DNA from: Myxococcales bacterium
Lineage (GTDB): Bacteria > Myxococcota > B64-G9
Direction of reading: 5' to 3'
NCBI GenBank assembly: GCA_012798435.1
Contig: JAAZNF010000041.1
Span: forward strand, 1 to 45,545
DNA: 45,545 nt
Positions 123-33,300 of the stretch are shown here, one piece after another; position 1 is the stretch's first letter; each line of letters starts with the position of its first letter. Made by a program: the position numbers and the translations under genes. Under the pieces are notes generated by a model. It did not search any database. It worked only from the letters and a program-made list of their open reading frames with translations, and was not told where the DNA came from.

Positions 123-2792
123 GTGCCCGCCACCTTCGTGCTCGACTTCTCCGACCTGGCCGCGCCCGACGGGACGGCCCGGCGCTACTTCTTGTACGTT
201 CGCGACAATCTAGCGAACGATCCCGCCGACGTCGCCGCCTTTTCGCTGGTGGATGAGCTCCACGGCACCACCCTGGCAGCCGGGGACCTGCCGCAGAGCG
301 TGGACAACGCCGAGCGATACTTCTGGGTGGACTACACCTTCTCCTCCGCCAACACTCCGCCCACCATCGGTGCCATCCCGGACCAGCTCATCCCCATGAA
401 TGGCTCGGCCGACGACGTCCCCTTCGCCGTGTCCGACGCCGAGACCGCGCCGGAGGCGCTCGCGGTGTGGGCCGAGACCGACGCCTCCTGGAACGGGCTG
501 CTGCCCGCGGCCGGGATCACCTTCGGCGGGAGCGGCGCCAACCGCACCCTGAGCATCCGCCCCGCGGGCTACCAGATCGGCAGCACGCGGGCGCGCATCC
601 GCGTCTCGGACGGCGAGGCGACGGGCGAGTCGAGCTTCTGGGTCCACGTGAGCCGGGCCGGCAACACCCCGCCCAGCGTGAGCGCCATCCCGGACCAGAC
701 CACGCCGGCCGGGAGCGCCACCGCGGCCATCCCCTTCACCGTGGGGGATGCGGAGACCCCGCTGGACGATCTGAAGATCACCCTCTCCGGCAGTGGCATG
801 CTGCTCGGCCACGAGATCGCGGGGAGCGGGGCGAGCCGCACCCTGCGCCTGTGCCCGCGCTCCGGCGTCGAGGGCAGCGAAGAACTCGCCCTGCTCGTCA
901 CGGACGGCGAGCTCACCGCCGAGCGGCGTTTCCGGCTCACCGTGACGCCCCGCGCGGCCAACACCCCGCCCTCGATATCCATCATCCCCGACCAGGCGAC
1001 GACGGAGGGCACACCCACCCCGCCCATCCCGTTCGTGCTCTCGGACGCCGAGACCGACCCGGCCTTCTTGCAGCTCTACTTCGACTGCGACGACTGGCGG
1101 CTCCTGCCTTACTCCCGGGTTTCCTTCGCGGGCCAGGGCGCCAACCGCAGCGTGACCCTGTGCCCGGCCTCCGGTAAGACCGGCACGGCCCTGATCACCC
1201 TGAGCGTGTGGGACGGACAGGAGCCCATGGGCACGACGCAGTTCCGCCTCACCGTCGGCGACGCCGCCAACACCCCGCCGACGCTGTCCGCCATCCCCGA
1301 CCAGCTCATCCCGGCCGGCGGCACCACCGGCCCCATTCCGTTCACGGTGAGCGACGCCGAGACGCCGCCGGAGTTCTTCGAGGTCACCTTCGGCTGCGAC
1401 AACTGGGACCTCATCTCCTGGAGCGGCATCCGCCTCGGCGGCAGCGGCGGCCTGCGCACGGTGGAGGTCACCCCGTACGTCGGCGAGCGCGGGACGGCCG
1501 AGATTTCGCTCCAGACCAGCGACGGGGAGTTCAGCGCCAGCGTGGCCTTCCGAGTGACGGTGGACGCGAGCCTCACCTGCGGCAACTTCGAGCTCGACCC
1601 GGGCGAGACCTGCGATCCGCCCTCCCGCTGCCCGACGAGCTGCGCCGACGTTGATCCCTGCACCGACGACACCATGAGCGGCTCGCCGGCGAGCTGCGAC
1701 GCCACCTGCCCACACGATCCGGTGATGGTGTGCCTGAGCGGTGACGGCTGCTGCCCGGCCGGCTGCCACGGCGGCAACGACACGGACTGCCCGCCGGTAT
1801 GCGGCAACTCCTACCTCGACCCGGAAGAGACTTGCGATCCGCCAACCACCTGCCCGGCGAGCTGCGATGACGGCGACGCCTGCACCGCCGACCAACTCTT
1901 GGGCGAGACCGCAGCCTGCACCGCGCGCTGCGAGAACGCTCCCATCACCTCCTGCGGCGCGGGCGACGGCTGCTGCCCCGTCGGCTGCCACGGCGGCAAC
2001 GACGCGGACTGCCCGGCGGTGTGCGGCAACAGTTACCGGGATCCAGGCGAGAGCTGCGATCCGCCGACGAGCTGCCCCACAAGCTGCGACGATGGCGATG
2101 TCTGCACCGCCGATCGGCTCGAGGGCGCGGCCGCCGAGTGCACCGCCCACTGCCTCTTCGACGCCATCAGCGCATGCGTGAGCGGCGACGGCTGCTGCCC
2201 GGCCGCCTGCGACCACGCCTCCGACGCCGACTGCTCGCCGGACTGCGGCAACGGGCACATCGACCCCAACGAGACTTGCGATCCACCGTCGAGCTGCCCC
2301 ACGAGCTGTGACGATGGCGACAACTGCACCAGCGACACCACGACCGGCAGCGCCGCGAACTGCAACGTGCGCTGCAACCATGCGCCGGTCCAGGTGTGTC
2401 AGGGGGGCGACGGCTGCTGTCCGGCCGGCTGCGAGCTGGCCGCGGACGCCGACTGCGCCCCGGTGTGCGGCAACTCGCGCGTCGATGCGAACGAGACCTG
2501 CGATCCGCCGGCGAGCTGCCCGGCGAGCTGCGACGACGGGGACGCCTGCACCGCCGACCGGCTGGAGGGCGCGGCCACCGAGTGCACCGCCCGCTGCGTC
2601 TTCGACGCCGTCACCGCCTGCGTGAGCGGCGACGGCTGCTGCCCGACCGGCTGCCGGGCGGCCCAGGACGGCGACTGCCACGAGCCGGGCGGGAAGATCA
2701 CCGGCGGTTGCGGCTGCGCCACCTCGGAGAGCGAGGATTCTCTGGCCTGGCTGATCCTGGCGCTGGCCATCGCTCTGCGCAAACGCCGTTAA
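123..2792 (+). CDS. Ig-like / Cys-rich repeat surface protein with MYXO-CTERM tag (5' partial)
   Basis: A large exported protein whose visible part starts at a GTG that is probably not the real start, since protein-like sequence continues upstream in another frame. Residues about 75-475 hold four repeats of roughly 100 residues. Each opens with a motif like ANTPPTIxAIPDQ and contains a DAET motif, typical of bacterial Ig/cadherin-like surface domains. From residue 486 there are five Cys-rich repeats of exactly 74 residues (CGN..xD..E.CDPP, then CDDGD.CT, then GDGCCP..C). The end reads ITGGCGCAT, then a hydrophobic LAWLILALAIAL, then RKRR, which is a MYXO-CTERM-type sorting tag. In the family this tag implies export, transient membrane anchoring and processing by a myxosortase. 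The ligand or enzyme role is unknown; there is no catalytic domain. Surface adhesion or structural protein is an inference. Confidence 0.85.
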   Translation: MPATFVLDFSDLAAPDGTARRYFLYVRDNLANDPADVAAFSLVDELHGTTLAAGDLPQSVDNAERYFWVDYTFSSANTPPTIGAIPDQLIPMNGSADDVPFAVSDAETAPEALAVWAETDASWNGLLPAAGITFGGSGANRTLSIRPAGYQIGSTRARIRVSDGEATGESSFWVHVSRAGNTPPSVSAIPDQTTPAGSATAAIPFTVGDAETPLDDLKITLSGSGMLLGHEIAGSGASRTLRLCPRSGVEGSEELALLVTDGELTAERRFRLTVTPRAANTPPSISIIPDQATTEGTPTPPIPFVLSDAETDPAFLQLYFDCDDWRLLPYSRVSFAGQGANRSVTLCPASGKTGTALITLSVWDGQEPMGTTQFRLTVGDAANTPPTLSAIPDQLIPAGGTTGPIPFTVSDAETPPEFFEVTFGCDNWDLISWSGIRLGGSGGLRTVEVTPYVGERGTAEISLQTSDGEFSASVAFRVTVDASLTCGNFELDPGETCDPPSRCPTSCADVDPCTDDTMSGSPASCDATCPHDPVMVCLSGDGCCPAGCHGGNDTDCPPVCGNSYLDPEETCDPPTTCPASCDDGDACTADQLLGETAACTARCENAPITSCGAGDGCCPVGCHGGNDADCPAVCGNSYRDPGESCDPPTSCPTSCDDGDVCTADRLEGAAAECTAHCLFDAISACVSGDGCCPAACDHASDADCSPDCGNGHIDPNETCDPPSSCPTSCDDGDNCTSDTTTGSAANCNVRCNHAPVQVCQGGDGCCPAGCELAADADCAPVCGNSRVDANETCDPPASCPASCDDGDACTADRLEGAATECTARCVFDAVTACVSGDGCCPTGCRAAQDGDCHEPGGKITGGCGCATSESEDSLAWLILALAIALRKRR
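1578..2687 (+). repeat. Five tandem 222-bp coding repeats
   Basis: The codon for the first Cys of each CGN motif lies at 1578, 1800, 2022, 2244 and 2466, an exact 222-bp period giving five 74-residue units. No unit has gained or lost a residue even though the DNA has diverged between units. Confidence 0.9.
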
Positions 2793-5860: not shown

Positions 5861-6202
5861 ATGTCTCGTCGACTGATGATCGCGCTGGCTCTGCTCGCGG
5901 GGTTCGTGTTCCTCGCTGCCACCGGCATGACGCTCGCCGCCCGCACCTCGTGCGGCTCCGACTCCGACTGCGCGGTGGGAAAGTGCAGCAGCAGCACCTG
6001 CGGTCACTGCGGCTCGGACTCCGACTGCAAGGGCCACTCCAAGTGCTCGGGCGGCATGTGCGGCCACTGCGGCTCGGACTCCGACTGCGCGGTGGGCAAG
6101 TGCTCGAGCGGCAAGTGCGGTTCCTGCGGCTCCGACTCGGACTGCAAGGGCGGCCGCTGCTCCAGCGGCAAGTGCTCGAACGCCGCCGAGTACTACAAGT
6201 AA
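5861..6202 (+). CDS. Small secreted four-repeat Cys-rich protein
   Basis: A 113-residue exported protein. The ATG at 5861 follows GGAGG at 5851-5855; longer in-frame extensions upstream lack a ribosome site. Residues 1-27 form a signal peptide ending near LAA. The mature part is almost only four repeats of about 19-20 residues, each starting CGSDSDC and continuing with a short Gly/Ser/Lys stretch and two more Cys. Repeats alternate AVGKC and KG..KC/RC types. This spacing resembles the short Cys-rich (Dickkopf-N-like) modules found in many Myxococcota surface proteins, here standing alone. It is probably disulfide-bonded in the envelope or medium; function unknown. The WbsX-like protein just downstream opens with a related TDGDC module. 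Confidence 0.85.
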   Translation: MSRRLMIALALLAGFVFLAATGMTLAARTSCGSDSDCAVGKCSSSTCGHCGSDSDCKGHSKCSGGMCGHCGSDSDCAVGKCSSGKCGSCGSDSDCKGGRCSSGKCSNAAEYYK

Positions 6203-6402: not shown

Positions 6403-8655
6403 ATGCGCCCGCACGTCGCCAGCGTCTGCCTTGCGTTGTTCCTGCCGCTCGCCTGCGGTTGCTCGGGTGGCCAGCAGTGTCGGACCGACGGCGACTGTCC
6501 GCACCGGCAGCGCTGCTTCGAGGGGCGCTGCATCACCGATCCCTGCCAGACCCTGGTGTGCGACGATCCGCCGTCGGACGAGTGCGCGACCGCGGCCACG
6601 CTGGCGCGCTACCGCGTCCCCGGAAGCTGCGTGGAGGGGACGTGCCGCTATGACCGCGAGGAGGTTTCCTGCCCATTCGGTTGCGAAGATGGCGCCTGCC
6701 TCGAGTGCGTGCCCGACTGGCAGGACAGCACGAGCTGCACCTGTCAGCCGAGCGCGTGCGCCGGCTGCGCGGGTCAGAAGACCCAGGCCGACGGCTGTGG
6801 CCACACCCGCGAGGTGTCCTGCGATCTCCCCCCGCTGGGCTGCGCCGGGGTGTGCTGCGAAGGCGTCTGCTGCGCCGCCGGCGAGTGGTGCCAGCAGGGC
6901 CGCTGCGCCCGCGAGTTCCCGGCCCGGCGGGTGGGCATCTTCTACCTGGCCTGGCACGCCTACGCCTGGGACGCCGTGCAGCAGCTCCCGGCGAACGACC
7001 GCCCGACCATCGAGAGCGTGGTGCGCGATCCGGCCCTGACGTTCTCCGGGATGCTCAACGACCACGGGCTGATGGGGCAGGCGGCGAACTTCCACTACCA
7101 CGCCGAGCCGCTCATCGGCTTCTACTCGCTCTACCGCGCCCGGCCCGGCGAGGCGCCCTACCCGGAGCCGGACTTCGTGCCGGACTCCCCGAACGCCGCC
7201 GCGGTGGCCGAGGCCCACGCGCGCCAGCTCTGGGAGGCGGGGGTCGATTTCGTGTTCGTCGACGCCACCAACCTGCCGTTCTTCTCGCCCTTCGCCGACG
7301 TGCTGGGGTTGCGCCCGGTGGAGGTGCTGTTCGAGGAGTGGCGGGCCCTGCGCCAGCGCGGCGTCATGACCCCGCAGATCGCGGTGTGGGTCCCCATCCC
7401 GGCCAAGCCCGCCGAGCACCCCGAGTGGATCCACCTGGCCGAGCGTTTTCTCGAGCTCTACAACCGGCCCGAGTACGCCGAGCTTCTGCTCCGCGACGCC
7501 CGCACGGGAAAGAAGGTCATGTTCATCGTGGACCACGGCGGGTTGCCGCCGGACCCGGCCACCGAGGCCGTCCTCCAGTCGAACGGCGGACGACAGGACG
7601 TGCTCACGCCGCACCTGTGGGGGCTGCTCTCGGATGCCGATCTCGTCGCCGGCAAGGCGGCCTGGATGCAACCTTGCCAGACGCCGGCCGGCGCGTGGAC
7701 CACGCTGATCGCGGCCGATGTCCCCTGCGCCCAGGGTTTCACCCGCCAAAGCCCCCTGGGCACGGTGCTCTCGGTGAGCACCTCCTACCAGCTCGCCTAC
7801 GCCAGCCTGCCCTTTCAAGCCTCGGGAAAGAACGAAGGGCTGACGCTGACAAAGCAGTTCGAGACGGCGTTCGCCGTGCAGCCCGACTATTTGCTCATCA
7901 ACTCCTGGAACGAGCTCATCGCCCAGCCGCAGCCCAACCCTTACGCGGCGAACCTCGGCAACCTGGGCCGCAGCCTGGGCAAGTACTCGCCGCCGCAAGA
8001 CCCCACCACCCCCGGCCTGGACTGGCTATGGGTGGACGCCTACGGTGCCGAGTTCGTGCGCGACATCGAGCCCACCGTCGAGTACGGGACGAAGTACCTC
8101 GACCTGTTGGCCTCGTGTCTGCGGGTGTACCGCTCGGGCGTCACCGCCTGCACCCCGGAGCAGCGGGCCGCCGAGCCCTGTTGCCAGGTCGAGGAGGAGC
8201 AGGTGCTGATCTACTCGCTGCGGGTGAAGGATCCCCAGAACACCCTCTCCACCCACCACGTGCTCACCCCGGACGCGCTCGAGCGCGACACCCTGCTCGG
8301 CTCGGGCGCCTGGGAGCAGGTGTGCAACCCGGTGTACGCCCCGCCGGGCCTGTGCGCCCGCGATCGCGACCTCGGCGCCGACGGGCCGTTTGTGCTCTTC
8401 GCCCGTCCCGGCCCGGAGCGGGCCCCGCTCTACCGCTGCTGGTCGGGAGTCGACAACTTCTTCTCGCTCGATCCCGCTTGCGAGGGGCGCGAGGTGGTAC
8501 GCCTCCTCGGCTACCTCTCCACCCGGCGCTCGACGAGCAGCGCACGGCCGCTCCAGCGCTGTTACCACCCGGCCGGACCGGCGCACTTCCACTGGCTCGA
8601 CGAAGCCTGCCCGGCGGGGCGCGAGGACGCGGGCTTGCTCGGCTTCGTGCGCTGA
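6403..8655 (+). CDS. Lipoprotein with Cys-rich head, WbsX/GH99-like barrel and DUF5648-like tail
   Basis: A 750-residue exported protein starting at an ATG behind GGAGGTG. Residues 1-20 are a lipoprotein-type signal with Cys18 and Cys20 as candidate lipid sites. Residues 21-175 form a dense Cys-rich region of several short modules (TDGDC near the start). From residue 177 (RVGIFYLAWHAYAW) to about 570 there is a barrel-like domain. Features such as LLINSWNEL followed by a IEPTVEYGTKYLDLL segment resemble the WNEW...EP..YG pattern of WbsX/GH99-like glycoside-active proteins. Residues about 600-750 hold two or three repeats with PLYRCWS..DNFFS and PLQRCYHP..HFHW, as in the DUF5648 repeat of secreted proteins. 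A role in polysaccharide handling at the cell surface is inferred from these similarities only. It converges with the next gene, 21 bp away. Confidence 0.8.
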   Translation: MRPHVASVCLALFLPLACGCSGGQQCRTDGDCPHRQRCFEGRCITDPCQTLVCDDPPSDECATAATLARYRVPGSCVEGTCRYDREEVSCPFGCEDGACLECVPDWQDSTSCTCQPSACAGCAGQKTQADGCGHTREVSCDLPPLGCAGVCCEGVCCAAGEWCQQGRCAREFPARRVGIFYLAWHAYAWDAVQQLPANDRPTIESVVRDPALTFSGMLNDHGLMGQAANFHYHAEPLIGFYSLYRARPGEAPYPEPDFVPDSPNAAAVAEAHARQLWEAGVDFVFVDATNLPFFSPFADVLGLRPVEVLFEEWRALRQRGVMTPQIAVWVPIPAKPAEHPEWIHLAERFLELYNRPEYAELLLRDARTGKKVMFIVDHGGLPPDPATEAVLQSNGGRQDVLTPHLWGLLSDADLVAGKAAWMQPCQTPAGAWTTLIAADVPCAQGFTRQSPLGTVLSVSTSYQLAYASLPFQASGKNEGLTLTKQFETAFAVQPDYLLINSWNELIAQPQPNPYAANLGNLGRSLGKYSPPQDPTTPGLDWLWVDAYGAEFVRDIEPTVEYGTKYLDLLASCLRVYRSGVTACTPEQRAAEPCCQVEEEQVLIYSLRVKDPQNTLSTHHVLTPDALERDTLLGSGAWEQVCNPVYAPPGLCARDRDLGADGPFVLFARPGPERAPLYRCWSGVDNFFSLDPACEGREVVRLLGYLSTRRSTSSARPLQRCYHPAGPAHFHWLDEACPAGREDAGLLGFVR

Positions 8656-11948: not shown

Positions 11949-13409
11949 ATGCGACAGAAGGTTCTCATCTGGCTGGGATTGGCGCTCTTTGCGGCGTGTT
12001 CGAGCCCCGGCGCGGGCGGCGACGGGGGCGCCACGGACGACGGTAGCGCAGTGTTCGACGATGCCGGTCCGGACACGGGCGGGGACGACGGCATTGCGGA
12101 CGCCACGGTTGGAGATGATGCGCGGGACGGCACGGACGGCGGTGGCGACGAAGACGGCGGCGGAGACGGCGCTGACGACGGCTCTTCGGACAGGTGCGCC
12201 GGGATGTCCGGGTGCGCCTGCCTGAGTTCGCTGCTCGACGACCCCCAGCGCTGCGCCCCGGAGAAATCGGCGCGCCTCGCGCAGGCGGTGGAGTCGCTCG
12301 CCGCCGAGATGAAGGCCCCCTGCCAGGGCCTGGACGAGGCGATCTTCGTCTACGCGGGAGAGGCTTCGTCCGTCGCGGTCGCCGGCGAGTTCAACGCCTG
12401 GACGGGCGAGGCGCTCGAGCGTTTGTGCGGCCTGAACCTGTGGGCGCGCCGCTCTTCACTCCCGGGGCGCTACTCCGAATACAAGCTGGTGATCGACGGC
12501 GCCTGGAAGCTCGATCCGGCCAACCGCGCCTTCGCCTACGACGACTTCGCCGGCAACGTAGACGGCAAGAACTCGGTGGTCAACATCCCCGGCAGCAACC
12601 ACAGCCACCTGGAGTGGTGGCCCGGAATTTCGTCAACCGAGCTCGGCAACACACGCGATCTCTTCGTGTACGTCCCCGCCAACTACCGGCCCGAGGAGGC
12701 GCTCACCTACCCCGTGCTCTACATGCACGACGGCCAGAACATCTTCGACGATAGCAGCTGCTGCTTCGGAAACGGCGGCTGGCAGGTCAACCTGGCCGCG
12801 GACCAGGAGCTCGCCTTCGGCAACGTCGCGCCCTTCTTCGTGGTGGGGATCGCCAACACCGCCGCGCGCCTGGACGAGTACACCATGTGCGTCGACACCA
12901 GCCAGGGCGAGCCCTTCGGCGGTAAGGCCGAGGCCTACGAGCGCTTCGTGCTCGAGGTGGTGATGCCGCTCATGGAGGACTCCTACCGCATCGATCCTGC
13001 GCAGCGAGCCATCGCTGGCTCGTCGCTGGGCGGGACCATCTCCATGTTCATCGCTCTCCGGCACCCCGAGCTCTTCCGGCGCGGGGTGGGCTCGCTCTCC
13101 GGCGCCTTCTGGGTGTGCCAGGATTCGCAGCAGGCGGTGCGCGATCAGGTGAGCGCCCTGCCGGGGCGGCTCGCGCTCCCCATCTACCTCGACTCGGGCG
13201 GAGACGTGTCGAGCAACGCCGACGGGGCCGCCGACACCCTGGAGGTCCGAAATCTCCTCCAGGCCAAGGGGTTCTCGGTGTCCGACGCGCCGCCCAACCA
13301 ACCGTGCGCTGAGAACGTGGACGTTTGTTATTATCTCGAGCCCGACGCGCCGCACAACGAGATCGCCTGGCGCGAGCGGGTGTGGCGGATGATCCGTTTC
13401 CTCGAATAG
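11949..13409 (+). CDS. Lipoprotein with CBM48/E-set domain and esterase D-type hydrolase
   Basis: A 486-residue exported carboxylic-ester hydrolase candidate. The ATG at 11949 follows GGAGGA. The lipobox FAAC places the lipid on Cys17. Residues 18-85 are a very acidic Asp/Gly linker. Residues about 120-215 look like the early-set (CBM48-like) domain seen before Fes/esterase D hydrolases (SVAVAGEFNAWTG, YKLVIDGAWKLDP). The alpha/beta hydrolase domain follows: VLYMHDGQN, the nucleophile elbow GSSLGG with Ser359, and likely Asp415 (LDSGGD) and His469 (PHNE). Relatives include enterochelin esterases and feruloyl or acetyl-xylan esterases, so the substrate could be a siderophore, a plant polymer or another ester. 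Downstream is a degraded low-GC patch rather than an operon. Confidence 0.85.
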   Translation: MRQKVLIWLGLALFAACSSPGAGGDGGATDDGSAVFDDAGPDTGGDDGIADATVGDDARDGTDGGGDEDGGGDGADDGSSDRCAGMSGCACLSSLLDDPQRCAPEKSARLAQAVESLAAEMKAPCQGLDEAIFVYAGEASSVAVAGEFNAWTGEALERLCGLNLWARRSSLPGRYSEYKLVIDGAWKLDPANRAFAYDDFAGNVDGKNSVVNIPGSNHSHLEWWPGISSTELGNTRDLFVYVPANYRPEEALTYPVLYMHDGQNIFDDSSCCFGNGGWQVNLAADQELAFGNVAPFFVVGIANTAARLDEYTMCVDTSQGEPFGGKAEAYERFVLEVVMPLMEDSYRIDPAQRAIAGSSLGGTISMFIALRHPELFRRGVGSLSGAFWVCQDSQQAVRDQVSALPGRLALPIYLDSGGDVSSNADGAADTLEVRNLLQAKGFSVSDAPPNQPCAENVDVCYYLEPDAPHNEIAWRERVWRMIRFLE

Positions 13410-13440
13410 ACAATTCCCATTTTGGCGCATTTGCCTGACT

Positions 13441-13455
13441 GCCGAGCGGCTCGGC
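13441..13455 (+). other. Short perfect hairpin after the esterase gene
   Basis: GCCGAG-CGG-CTCGGC, a 6-bp stem with a 3-base loop, 31 bp after the stop codon. No T tract follows, so a terminator role is uncertain. Nothing else is recognised in 13410-13578. Confidence 0.35.
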
Positions 13456-13589
13456 GCTGGTGGGTGGGAATGGCGGGCGGGCACTCTTCGACGGGCCGGC
13501 AGCGAGGTTGTGATAGTCGAATTCCGTCCCCTTGGTTCGCTCATCATGACGACCGATTGGAGCGAAGAGAGACATTTCAAGGAGGGTGA

Positions 13590-13812
13590 ATGAAAAGGCT
13601 ATTCTTTCTTGGGGCATTTCTGGCGATCATTTTCGGGGCGCTCGGAGGCGGTGTTCACGCAAGCTTCGAACAGAACACAATCCTCCAAATGTTTTGACAC
13701 GTATTGTGTCTGCAGTGGTGTCCGTAACTGTTTCAACATGGGACGTTCTGGCGTTTGCAAGGGACCGATCCGTTGTCACGAGGAATTTCAGATTTGCATC
13801 TGCGCCTATTGA
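13590..13812 (+). pseudogene. Frameshifted gene for a secreted eight-cysteine mini-protein
   Basis: An ATG at 13590, five bases after a strong AAGGAGGG ribosome site, opens a clean signal peptide (MKRLFFLGAFLAIIFGALGG ending VHA). The frame meets TGA at 13695-13697. One frame over, starting around 13684, the sequence continues as a Cys-rich mature part of about 42 residues (KCFDTYCVCSGVRNC ... ICICAY) with eight Cys, ending at TGA 13810-13812. An extra base between about 13665 and 13690 explains both pieces. Base composition is far lower in GC than the neighbours (26 of 60 bases in 13681-13740), suggesting foreign origin. It may be a true mutation, a sequence error or, less likely, programmed frameshifting. 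The peptide matches no family I know. Confidence 0.6.
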
Positions 13813-13863
13813 AGTGCGGCTCTTTCATCCTCTGAGCGGGTGAGGAACAGCCACGAGGTTCGC

Positions 13864-14289
13864 GTGCGAAGAGGGATCGCGATCGGTGCCGGCAGTTTGG
13901 TCGCCATCGCTGGACTCCTGTCCTTGGCATTGCTGCGGCCTTCTCGTGTCTCAATGTCGCCTGCACAAACCGAATCCAATGGCGATCTTACTGAAAGCCC
14001 TCAAACAGAAGACCCTGAAAAGCCTGCTCGTCATTTCAAAGAAAACCGGCCCGATGTGCCCTGAGCCGATGCAGATGAGCTCTTATCCTATCTGGGAACA
14101 GATGTCGGCCGGCGTTCTCGCCATGCCCTCATCGGCGGGTCGTCACTGGACGAGCTCATCCAGTTTTACGATGTCGCCGCCGGAGAGTACCGCTTGTGCG
14201 GTGTTCGGATGGATTCGAAAAGTATCTCATGCCGTATATTTCAGGTCGTGGACGATTCGTCGGTCGTCGAGTTGTCGCCCGACATCTGA
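13864..14289 (+). pseudogene. Membrane-anchored protein gene interrupted by an in-frame TGA
   Basis: The frame starts at GTG 13864 behind GAGG (or at GTG 13840) with a single membrane helix (GIAIGAGSLVAIAGLLSLALL), then a polar linker to TGA at 14062-14064. The same frame stays open right after this stop for 74 more codons and reads as convincing protein (ADADELLSYLGTDVGRRS, then SLDELIQFYDVAAGEYRLCG) up to TGA at 14287-14289. The simplest reading is one gene of about 140 codons with a nonsense change, for example CGA to TGA. A selenocysteine codon is possible in this phylum, but there is no redox-type Cys/Sec motif around it. It lies 51 bp after the Cys-rich mini-gene and ends 12 bp from the convergent phospholipase D-like gene. 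Function unknown. Confidence 0.5.
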
Positions 14290-14301
14290 ATCCGTGCAAT
14301 C

Positions 14302-15828
14302 TCAGGGCCGGTCGGCAGCCTGGCGGGTGCGGGCCCAGTCGTCGAGGAAGGCCTGGAACACCCCGTCGTCCTCGATGCGCAGCATGGTCTCGTCGTTGCT
14401 CCACAGCGCCGGGCCGGTCCAGTTGTGCGAGCCGCAGAAGACCAGCCGCCGGTGCTCCGCCGAGCCCTCGAAGGGCGCGTCGATGAGCAGGATCTTGGAG
14501 TGGATGGTCCAGCCGCCGCTGCGCTCCGGGTAGGGGACCAGCGTCACTCCGCCCGCCGTCAGCGTGCTCTCGACCTGGGCGCCCAGGTTGTTGTCGTAGG
14601 TGCTGGCCACCACGGCCACGTCGCAGCCGGCCTGCCGGCGCGCCACCAGGGCCTGGGCCACGGCCAGTCGCGCGTCGGTGAAGAAGGCGGTGAGCGCCCG
14701 GATGCGCGAGGTCGAGTCGCAGGAGACGCTGTTGAGGATGGACACCACCGGATCGGTCCCGCGCCCCTTGGGGAAGTAGTACACCCGCGTCGGCCCGTCG
14801 CCGTTGTCGTAGTGGTAGAAGTACTCGTTCTCGACGTCGGCCCACAGGTCCTCGAAGGCCCGCTCGTAGCTCGCAAACAGCGCCGCGTCGCCGGAGACGA
14901 TCACCGCGTTGTTGTGCAGGTTGAGCTGGAGGCTGGTGAGGTTCTGCGAGGCCTGGAGCACCACCTTCTCGGTCCCGTCGGCGAGGCGCGAGAACAAGAA
15001 GGTCTTGTGGTGCATGATGCCGCTGCCGACGCAGGCCGTCCCCGGGGCGTCGCACAGGTGGACCCGGTCCGTGCCGAGCCCCGCCTGGAGCGTGCCCACC
15101 TCGCTGCCGAGGAGGTCGCCGGCGCCGCCGTCGAGGAGCACCCGCACGTCCACCCCGCGAAGGTAGGCGGCCACCAGCTCGTCCGCCACCCGGTCGCGGG
15201 TGAAGGTGTACATGGCCACCTGCACGCGCGAGCCAGGCGCGGCGCGCTGGATGAGATCCACGATGGCGTTCTCGACGGCGTAGTCCCGGCTGTCGTCCGC
15301 CGGCCGGGTGGAGAACACCGTGCGGAAGGCAACTCCGGGCTGCGCCCCGTCGCCGTCCGCGGCCCCGGCGTCATCGGGGAGCGTGCCGCCGTCGTCCGCC
15401 GGGCCTCCCCCGTCGTCTTCTGAAAAGCCCCCGTCATCCTCTGCGCTGCCGCCGTCGTCGGAAAAGCCACCCCCGTCATCGAGGTCCGCGCCGCCGTCGT
15501 CCGCTACCGGCCCCCCGTCGTCCTCGCCCGGCCCGCCGTCGTCTTCCAGGCTGCCGCCGTCGTCTTCGCCCGGCCCGCCGTCGTCTTCCAGGCCGCCGCC
15601 GTCGTCTCCCGCGGGCTCTCCCTCGTCCGCCTCCTCGCCCCCGTCGTCCGAAAAGACGCCTCCGTCGTCGGATGGCGCGGCGCCGTCGTCCGCTGTCCCG
15701 TCCGCCTCCTCGAAGCCGGTGTCGAGATCCTCGGCCTCTTGCGACGAGCAACCCGGCGCCATGATGGGGACCGCTCCCAGATAGGCCACCACGGTCGCCA
15801 CAAGAAAAACTGTCGAGATCCGGCTCAT
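14302..15828 (-). CDS. Phospholipase D-like lipoprotein with long Asp/Gly linker
   Basis: A 508-residue exported protein with two PLD-type half-sites, expected to act on phosphodiester bonds. The ATG at 15828 follows GAGGA; an in-frame ATG at 15855 has no ribosome site. The signal ends in APGCSS (candidate lipobox). Residues about 25-165 are nearly pure Asp/Gly/Glu with recurring DDGG. Half-site 1 is at His273-x-Lys275 (MHHKTFLF), where the usual Asp is replaced, with ASQNLT after it. Half-site 2 is a full HxKxxxxD (IHSKILLID, His443) with GSHNWT. The pairing is like cardiolipin synthase and nuclease-type PLDs, and the extracytoplasmic location argues against lipid synthesis. A surface nuclease or phospholipase role is inferred. 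The long acidic linker resembles that of the neighbouring esterase lipoprotein. Confidence 0.85.
   Translation of the reverse strand: MSRISTVFLVATVVAYLGAVPIMAPGCSSQEAEDLDTGFEEADGTADDGAAPSDDGGVFSDDGGEEADEGEPAGDDGGGLEDDGGPGEDDGGSLEDDGGPGEDDGGPVADDGGADLDDGGGFSDDGGSAEDDGGFSEDDGGGPADDGGTLPDDAGAADGDGAQPGVAFRTVFSTRPADDSRDYAVENAIVDLIQRAAPGSRVQVAMYTFTRDRVADELVAAYLRGVDVRVLLDGGAGDLLGSEVGTLQAGLGTDRVHLCDAPGTACVGSGIMHHKTFLFSRLADGTEKVVLQASQNLTSLQLNLHNNAVIVSGDAALFASYERAFEDLWADVENEYFYHYDNGDGPTRVYYFPKGRGTDPVVSILNSVSCDSTSRIRALTAFFTDARLAVAQALVARRQAGCDVAVVASTYDNNLGAQVESTLTAGGVTLVPYPERSGGWTIHSKILLIDAPFEGSAEHRRLVFCGSHNWTGPALWSNDETMLRIEDDGVFQAFLDDWARTRQAADRP
15370..15700 (-). repeat. Low-complexity Asp/Gly coding repeats
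   Basis: The DNA is a string of near-copies of CCGCCGTCGTC (plus-strand view) coding for DDGG units in the linker of the phospholipase D-like protein. Such tracts can change length by slippage. Confidence 0.75.
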
Positions 15829-15853
15829 CGCGTCCTCGGCGAAGACAACACCC

Positions 15854-15882
15854 ATTATTGTGCCATACGACGGACCTGAAAA
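15854..15882 (-). promoter_or_regulatory. Possible promoter for the phospholipase D-like gene
   Basis: On the minus strand TTTTCA (15882-15877), a 17-bp spacer and AATAAT (15859-15854), about 30 bp before the start codon. The adjacent T-rich tract at 15903-15914 lies in the shared divergent gap. Confidence 0.35.
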
Positions 15883-30363: not shown

Positions 30364-33300
30364 ATGAAAACCATGCTCCCCGTAACCCTGTTTGCCCTCG
30401 TGTCACTTCTGGCCGGCTGCTCGGACTCGAGCCGGGCGCTGTCGCCGTGGAAGAGCGGCCTTTCCGATGAGCCGGCGCTCACCCGCATCTACACCCCGGC
30501 GCCGGAGAAGCTGCGCGCCGAACTCATCCGCCGCGGCCTGGACGTCACCGGCTCGCACCACCGGTTGGGATACGTGGACGTGTACGCCACACCCGAGAAG
30601 CGCGACGCCGCGCTGCGAGATCTGACGGCTCGGGTGAGCCGGCTCGAAACCCTCGACCATCGCCGCTCGGCGCTGGCGCTTTCCGACTACCGCAACCCGG
30701 CCGAGGTGTCGGCCTACCTCGACTCCATCGCGGCCACTTATCCCAACCTGGCCCGCAAGGTGGACCTCACCCCCTCCGGGCTCTTCGAGGGCAACCACGT
30801 CTACGCCATGAAGATCTCGGACAACGTGGCCACGGACGAGGACGAGCCCACCATCCTGTTCACGAGCCAGATCCACGCCCGCGAGGTCATGACCGAGGAG
30901 ATCACCTGCGATATCGCCGACTACCTGACCTCGCGCTACGCCTCGGACCCCGAGGTCAAGCAGTGGGTGGATTCGATGGAGATCTGGGTCATCCCACAGG
31001 TCAACCCCGACGGGGCCGCCTACGTGTTCTCCACCTACAACTACTGGCGCAAGAACCGTCACCCCAACTGCGAGGTGGACAACAACCGCAACTTCGTCTG
31101 GAACTGGGCCCAGTGCCCCGGCTCCAGCGGCGACTGCGGCGACGACACCCACCACGGGGCGAGCGCCGGCTCCGAGCCCGAGACCCAGGCCACCGACGCG
31201 CTCATGGCCGAGCTGCGGCCCATGTACTACATCGACTTCCACTCCTACGGCGAGTACATCCTGTGGCCGAGCGGCTGCGAGAAGACCGAGGAGGACGACC
31301 TCTTCCGGCTGTGGGTGAGCGAGGTCAACGCCATCCTGCCCGACGACGACGGGCAGACCGGCAACTTCACCATCGGCAACACCGCCGACACGCTGTACAC
31401 CGCGCCCGGCGGCACCGACGATCACGCCTACGGCGCCTACGGCGCGCTGGGCGTGACCATCGAGATCAACCGCGACTTCCAGCCCGACTTCGCAAGCTTG
31501 CGCAACCCCACCGTGCAGCGCATGCGCAACGCCTGGCAGTACCTGATCCGCCGCACCCTGAATGGCCCCTCGGTGCGCGGGCACACCTTCGACGCCCAGA
31601 CCGGCGCGCCGGTGGTGGCCCATTACCAGTTCAGCAACCACCCCTTCACCCATGGACAATGGCCGCTACGCACCGACGCGGTGGGCCGCTTCGGCCGTGC
31701 GCTGATGCCGAACTCCGATCACGTGGTGGTGTTCACCGCCCCGGGGTACCTGCCGGCGGCGCGCTCGGTCCACGTGGGCACGGGCCCGGCCGACCTCGAG
31801 GTGCCCATGACCGCCGGGACCAACCACGCCCCGACGGTGGTGGTGGGCCCGGACCAGACGGTGAATGAAGGCGACACCGTCACCCTGGACGCGAGCCAGA
31901 GCTCCGATCCCGATCCGGGCACGGCGCTGGTGTTCGTGTGGACCCAGACCGGCGGTCCGGCGGTGGCGCTGCGAAACGCCTCCACCGCCACGCCGAGTTT
32001 CTTCGCCCCCGGGGTGAGCCAGGACACCGTGCTCACCTTCCAGGTGGTGGCCTCGGACGGTGAGCTCTCGAGCGCCCCGGCCACCACCCGGGTCACCGTG
32101 CGCAACATGTGGGACGAAAGCACGACCTTCCCCTCCGCCGACACCCCGATCTCCATCCCCGACGCCGACGACACCGGCATCACCTCCATCATCCACGTGA
32201 GCGACAACCGCCCCATCCTTTCCGCCCGGGCCCACGTGGACATCACCCACACCTATATCGGCGATCTCATCGTCGAGCTGACCTCGCCCTCGGGCACCCG
32301 CGTGGTGCTCCACGACCACGCCGGCGGCAGCACCCAGAACCTGCACGCCGAGTACGAGCTGATCCAGGTGGCGGGCGAGATGGCCGGTGGCGACTGGCGG
32401 CTGCATGTCGCGGACACCGCCGGCGGCGACTCGGGCACCCTGGACGCCTGGACCTTGACCCTGGAGCTGGTCGGCGATCCGCCCTGCCAGCAGGCCTCCG
32501 ATTGCCAACTTCCCCACACCCTGGTGGCGGACTGCGTGGCGGGCCGCTGCGAGGTGGTGACCTGCGCGGCCGGCTTCGGCAACTGCAACGGCATCCACTC
32601 CGACGGCTGCGAGACCGTGCTCGCCTCGGATCCTCTGCACTGCGGAAGCTGTGAAAACGCCTGCGCCTTCCCCCACGCCGCCGCCCTGTGCCAGAACTCC
32701 GCCTGCGTCATGGGTGCCTGCGAGGCGAACTACGGCGACTGCAACGCCTCCGCCGCCGACGGCTGCGAGATCCCGCTCGCCTCGGATCCCCTGCACTGCG
32801 GAAGCTGCGAAAACGCCTGCAGCTTCCCCCACGCCAGCGCCCTGTGCCAGACCGGCCAGTGCCGGCTCGGCACCTGCGAGGCGCTCTTCGGCAACTGCGA
32901 CGGGGTCGCCACCAACGGCTGCGAGTCCGATCTTTCTGCGGACCCGAGCCACTGCGGCACCTGTACCCGGGTGTGCAACCTGGCCCACGCCACCTCGAAG
33001 TGCGTCGCGGGCGCCTGCCAGGTGGACACCTGCCAGGGCTCGTGGGCGGATTGCGACGGCGCGGGCGCGAACGGCTGCGAGGCCGACCTCGACACCAACG
33101 TCGCGCACTGCGGCGACTGCGCCGTAAACTGCCAGGCGCTGAACGCCCAGGTGAGCTGCCAGGCCGGCGCCTGCGTCATGGGGGCGTGCCTCTCCGGCTA
33201 CGCGGACTGCGACGGGGCCGCCGCCACCGGCTGCGAGGCCGACCTGCGCTCGGACCCGCTCCACTGCGGCGCCTGCGATGCGCCCTGCGCGCTGGCCCAC

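What the first reader, a model, noticed from the sequence alone, without database searches (positions are those of the whole stretch)
13590..13812. Secreted eight-cysteine mini-protein split by a frameshift
A textbook ribosome site and signal peptide lead into a stop, while the neighbouring frame carries a short segment with eight Cys in about 42 residues. One extra base restores a single small secreted disulfide-rich peptide. Such peptides can be toxins, bacteriocins or protease inhibitors, and this one matches nothing I know.
Basis: partly seen in the sequence, partly recalled or inferred. Interest (0 to 1): 0.6.

Follow-up and report, generated by a model that had tools for sequence, protein, structure and literature searches.

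The report
Broken gene for secreted disulfide mini-protein
A short, compositionally foreign stretch of this bacterial genome most likely carries the broken remains of a gene for a small exported protein held together by four disulfide bonds; one unbroken look-alike turned up in an unrelated sulfur bacterium, but what either does is unknown.

Summary
At 13590-13697 a strong ribosome site (AGGAGG, 13580-13585) and a good Sec signal peptide run into TGA after 35 codons. The +1 frame carries eight Cys in 38 residues (CX4CXCX5CX8CX5CX6CXC) and stops at 13812. The site lies in an 892-nt island (13410-14301, GC 0.55, GC3 near 0.5), the only such stretch in a 45-kb contig of GC 0.70.

Neither piece has a relative among 195 genomes of the phylum, IMG/VR, phages, plasmids, Pfam, NCBIfam, PHROGs or PDB. 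It is a distant match and borderline beyond the cysteines.

Best reading: a recently acquired or young orphan gene for a secreted four-disulfide mini-protein, now broken here. An assembly indel is the main rival and needs reads. A prfB-like +1 site (TTT TGA C) sits at the stop, but the SD-like element is missing, and slipping there would lose the first cysteine that Thiofilum keeps. Function is inference only. Interest is modest.

The parts
13410..14301 (.). 892-nt low-GC island (GC 0.55) between an esterase gene and a PLD-family gene
   Evidence: only such stretch in the 45-kb window; GC3 about 0.5 versus mostly 0.85-0.95 in host genes; no DNA match in its own genome beyond itself or in nine relatives
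13580..13585 (+). Shine-Dalgarno AGGAGG
   Evidence: read directly
13590..13697 (+). Signal-peptide ORF, 35 aa, ending at TGA 13695-13697
   Evidence: hydrophobic core mean Kyte-Doolittle 2.67 over 15 residues; likely cleavage VHA|S by inspection
13669..13812 (+). Cys-rich segment in the +1 frame: CX4CXCX5CX8CX5CX6CXC, stop TGA 13810-13812
   Evidence: aligns over all eight Cys with Thiofilum P0006
13692..13698 (+). TTT TGA C, resembling a prfB-type +1 slippery stop, without an upstream SD-like element
   Evidence: read; motif elements from PMC12421855
13840..14064 (+). Possible downstream ORF, GTG start, one transmembrane helix, 74 aa, ends in TGA
   Evidence: no family or relative
14065..14289 (+). 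Same frame continued after the TGA: 74 residues without a stop, no early start codon
   Evidence: single-sequence AlphaFold pLDDT about 80 for residues 31-70, pTM 0.48; a competing frame is equally open

Best explanation
The island carries the remains of a horizontally acquired or young orphan gene for a Sec-exported mini-protein of about 45 mature residues with four disulfide bonds. Intact, it would work like this: the signal peptide sends it through Sec, signal peptidase cuts near VHA|S, periplasmic thiol oxidation makes four disulfides, and the compact mini-protein acts outside or in the envelope. In this genome a one-base frame offset between the signal peptide and the Cys-rich part makes translation stop at TGA 13695, so no Cys-rich product is expected. 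Shown here: the ORFs, stop, frame offset, Cys spacing, island composition, and one unbroken look-alike. Inferred: origin, decay, export, disulfides, activity.
For: Strong ribosome site plus signal peptide directly ahead of an evenly spaced 8-Cys segment. An unbroken protein in Thiofilum flexile has a signal peptide and identical spacing of all eight Cys plus shared CSG, M, VC and IC positions; BLASTP pairwise E 2e-4, tblastn against two Thiofilum stretches E 6e-5. It scores above all 86 chance matches of the same spacing. The island is the only low-GC stretch of the contig, with host-atypical GC3, and is absent from relatives, which fits recent acquisition. A second frame just downstream is also cut by an in-frame TGA, which fits decay.
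Against: Only one relative, found by a pattern that already demanded seven of the Cys and an MK start. Beyond Cys the match is borderline (permutation P 0.03-0.06). The Pfam, NCBIfam, PHROGs and PDB searches are empty. Frame openness is not informative here: a third frame is also open across 13586-13843 and a competing frame is open downstream. No read data, so an assembly indel is not excluded.
Confidence: 0.5

Rival explanations
1. The gene is intact in the organism and the frame break is a base-level error of this draft assembly (129 contigs).
For: Draft genome in 129 contigs; small indels are a common kind of assembly error (general knowledge); an unbroken look-alike exists.
Against: The large neighbouring genes in the 45 kb are long and unbroken with high GC3, so errors do not look frequent here; a second frame in the same island is also interrupted.
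Confidence: 0.22
2. Chance: a short signal-like ORF next to a Cys-dense wrong frame in non-coding DNA; the Thiofilum match is coincidence of Cys spacing.
For: Wrong-frame Cys-dense stretches are common in this contig; 0.7% of island shuffles reach 8 Cys in 42; no relatives in the phylum; 5 of 30 loop identities only.
Against: Requires the coincidence of ribosome site, signal peptide, evenly spaced Cys at the right distance, a first Cys at X4 and an X8 loop that also match Thiofilum, and a score above 86 chance matches.
Confidence: 0.22
3. Programmed +1 frameshift at TTT TGA C (13692-13698), as in prfB: Phe-tRNA slips on TTTT past a weak stop, so the secreted peptide is made at a regulated level.
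For: TTT TGA C has the run of T before a TGA followed by C; 21 surveyed genomes use a poly-T version in prfB (PMC12421855).
Against: No purine-rich SD-like element upstream (sequence there is TCCTCCAAATG), which that paper reports as hyper-conserved; no unusual RNA structure at 13560-13720 (z 0.20); slipping there skips the Cys at 13690, leaving seven Cys, while Thiofilum has eight in one ordinary frame.
Confidence: 0.05

Closest known systems
Thiofilum flexile DSM 14609 hypothetical protein (L151:1243-1536, P0006)
   Same: Signal peptide; all eight Cys with identical spacing; CSG after the second and third Cys, M, VC and IC shared; similar start-to-first-Cys distance
   Different: Unbroken; has a 24-residue Pro-containing tail after the last Cys; 25 of 30 loop residues differ; sits among other small Cys-containing ORFs
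prfB programmed +1 frameshift site (PMC12421855)
   Same: T-run followed by TGA C
   Different: No SD-like element upstream; TTTT instead of CTTT; would lose one Cys
LDL-receptor class A domain
   Same: C-x-G-x-x-[DN]-C piece; weak phmmer hit of the Thiofilum protein, E 2-4
   Different: Not significant; the acidic Ca-binding residues (known from the family, not tested) are not seen in the window segment; eight rather than six Cys; profile search empty

Membership tests
Secreted 8-Cys mini-protein like Thiofilum P0006 | Sec signal peptide at the start | tested here: met
   (by sequence and hydropathy, no SignalP available)
Secreted 8-Cys mini-protein like Thiofilum P0006 | Cys spacing CX4CXCX5CX8CX5CX6CXC | tested here: met
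Secreted 8-Cys mini-protein like Thiofilum P0006 | Sequence similarity beyond the cysteines | tested here: inconclusive
   5 of 30 loop residues, permutation P 0.03 (identity) and 0.06 (score)
Secreted 8-Cys mini-protein like Thiofilum P0006 | One continuous reading frame | tested here: not met
   TGA at 13695 between signal peptide and Cys segment
prfB-type programmed +1 frameshift | Slippery pyrimidine run plus TGA C | tested here: met
   TTT TGA C at 13692-13698 (poly-T variant described in PMC12421855)
prfB-type programmed +1 frameshift | Purine-rich SD-like element about 3 nt before the slippery codon | tested here: not met
   TCCTCCAAATG precedes the site
Any Pfam, NCBIfam or PHROGs family | Profile match above the curated cut-off | tested here: not met
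Bacteriocin, toxin or protease inhibitor | Demonstrated activity, or homology to a tested member | not testable with these tools
   no homolog of known function found

The most novel reading that the evidence does not exclude
The stop is not damage: a prfB-like +1 slip at TTT TGA C makes a secreted disulfide mini-protein from two frames, giving a natural use of this recoding site outside release factor 2.
Probability: 0.04. Interest if true: 0.65.

Novelty: new member of a known kind. Interest (0 to 1): 0.27.

Why it matters
If the Thiofilum match is homology, the two sequences define a very sparsely spread family of four-disulfide secreted mini-proteins shared by two phyla and missed by all family libraries tried. 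Such proteins are small enough to express and solve. The broken copy would also show how such genes come and go in low-GC islands of GC-rich genomes. As it stands it is a likely pseudogene of unknown function.

Tried and rejected
Empty searches: tblastn of the Cys segment in 195 phylum genomes, plasmids and phages; 8-residue pattern scans of genome contigs and viral contigs; the weak hits were read in context and dropped as wrong-frame or unrelated. The 7-Cys spacing in viral contigs gave only low-complexity or chance matches. A 2-sequence profile in 195 phylum and 369 class genomes found only the two known members. Downstream pieces: nothing. Structure models are low confidence (mean pLDDT 64.5 and 64.8) and Foldseek found nothing. 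Rfam, promoter, terminator and repeat scans of the island: nothing beyond chance. My error: searches used patterns with a wrong gap length and count for nothing; the corrected pattern was run, with no further member. The 85-aa frame 13586-13843 was rejected as a gene because its GTG directly abuts the AGGAGG.

Full report
Observation. The window has AGGAGG at 13580-13585, ATG at 13590 and a 35-codon ORF with a Lys-Arg start, a long hydrophobic core and an AXA-type cleavage site (VHA|S), ending at TGA 13695-13697. The frame shifted by +1 is open for 72 codons across the same place and ends at TGA 13810-13812. It holds eight Cys in 38 residues with spacing CX4CXCX5CX8CX5CX6CXC. The frames overlap for about 100 nt, so where the change lies is not determined by the sequence.

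Chance. Cys-dense segments are not rare in this GC-rich contig. By my reading, seven wrong-frame segments in long ORFs reach 8 or more Cys in 42 residues, mostly with CC runs. In Markov shuffles of the island itself, 0.7% give at least 8 Cys in 42 stop-free residues in any frame. So the count alone is weak evidence; the position behind a ribosome site and signal peptide, and the spacing, carry the case.

Setting. The segment lies in an 892-nt gap between an esterase gene with a glycogen-recognition-like module (11949-13409) and a PLD-family gene (14302-15855, minus strand). The gap has GC 0.55 against 0.70 for the contig and is the only such stretch in 45 kb. GC at third codon positions is about 0.5, against mostly 0.85-0.95 in host genes. 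The island DNA is single copy and absent from the relatives searched. Downstream, in the frame of the Cys segment, are two further 74-residue stretches separated by a TGA. The first has a transmembrane helix. The second gives a partly confident single-sequence model. Their coding status is uncertain because another frame is as open.

Relatives. The Cys segment has no relative among 195 genomes of the phylum by tblastn or by a two-sequence profile, none in plasmids or phages, none by 8-residue patterns in GTDB contigs or IMG/VR, and no family match. One of these encodes, in one frame, a signal peptide and a Cys core: Thiofilum flexile L151:1243-1536 (Thiotrichales). The first Cys (X4) and the X8 loop, which the scan did not fix, also match, as do CSG, M, VC and IC. 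BLASTP pairwise E is 2e-4, but this counts Cys the search had selected. Permuting loop residues gives P 0.03 by identity and 0.06 by score; against 86 chance matches of the same spacing it ranks first. I take homology as likely, not shown. No third member was found in 280 relatives of Thiofilum, 369 genomes of its class, or viral contigs.

Why is it split? Decay of an acquired or orphan gene fits the foreign composition, the lack of relatives nearby and the second interruption downstream. An assembly error fits equally well at the base level and cannot be excluded without reads; neighbouring genes are unbroken. Programmed frameshifting was tested against the described prfB elements (PMC12421855). 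TTT TGA C is present, and a poly-T variant is known, but the SD-like element is missing, no special RNA structure is predicted, and a slip there would drop the Cys at 13690 that Thiofilum keeps.

Function. If intact, the most likely mechanism is Sec export, signal peptide removal, oxidative folding to four disulfides and action outside the cytoplasm. This is inference from the anatomy. No result here points to a target. Toxin, bacteriocin and inhibitor are all guesses.

Method note. Searches had a gap-length mistake and are void as evidence.

Noticed in passing
window 13840-14289: Two 74-residue stretches in one frame split by TGA; the first with a transmembrane helix, the second with a partly confident beta-rich model and no relatives.
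   Followed up: partly
L151:188-1536 (Thiofilum flexile): Row of four small Cys-containing ORFs, at least three with signal-like starts, ending in the eight-Cys protein; the 6.6-kb stretch is present identically at the ends of two contigs.
   Followed up: partly
window 14302-15855 (-): PLD-family protein with a long (DDGG)n-type low-complexity stretch after its signal region.
   Followed up: no
window 1629-1754, 5945-6070, 6643-6768, 32641-32766: Cys-dense stretches in open frames; by frame arithmetic three of them (1629, 6643, 32641) are in frame in large host proteins, so Cys-rich proteins are not rare in this genome.
   Followed up: no
window 13681-13686: TCCTCC inside the signal-peptide ORF is complementary to the gene's own AGGAGG; the predicted fold pairs it elsewhere and is not more stable than shuffles.
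   Followed up: yes
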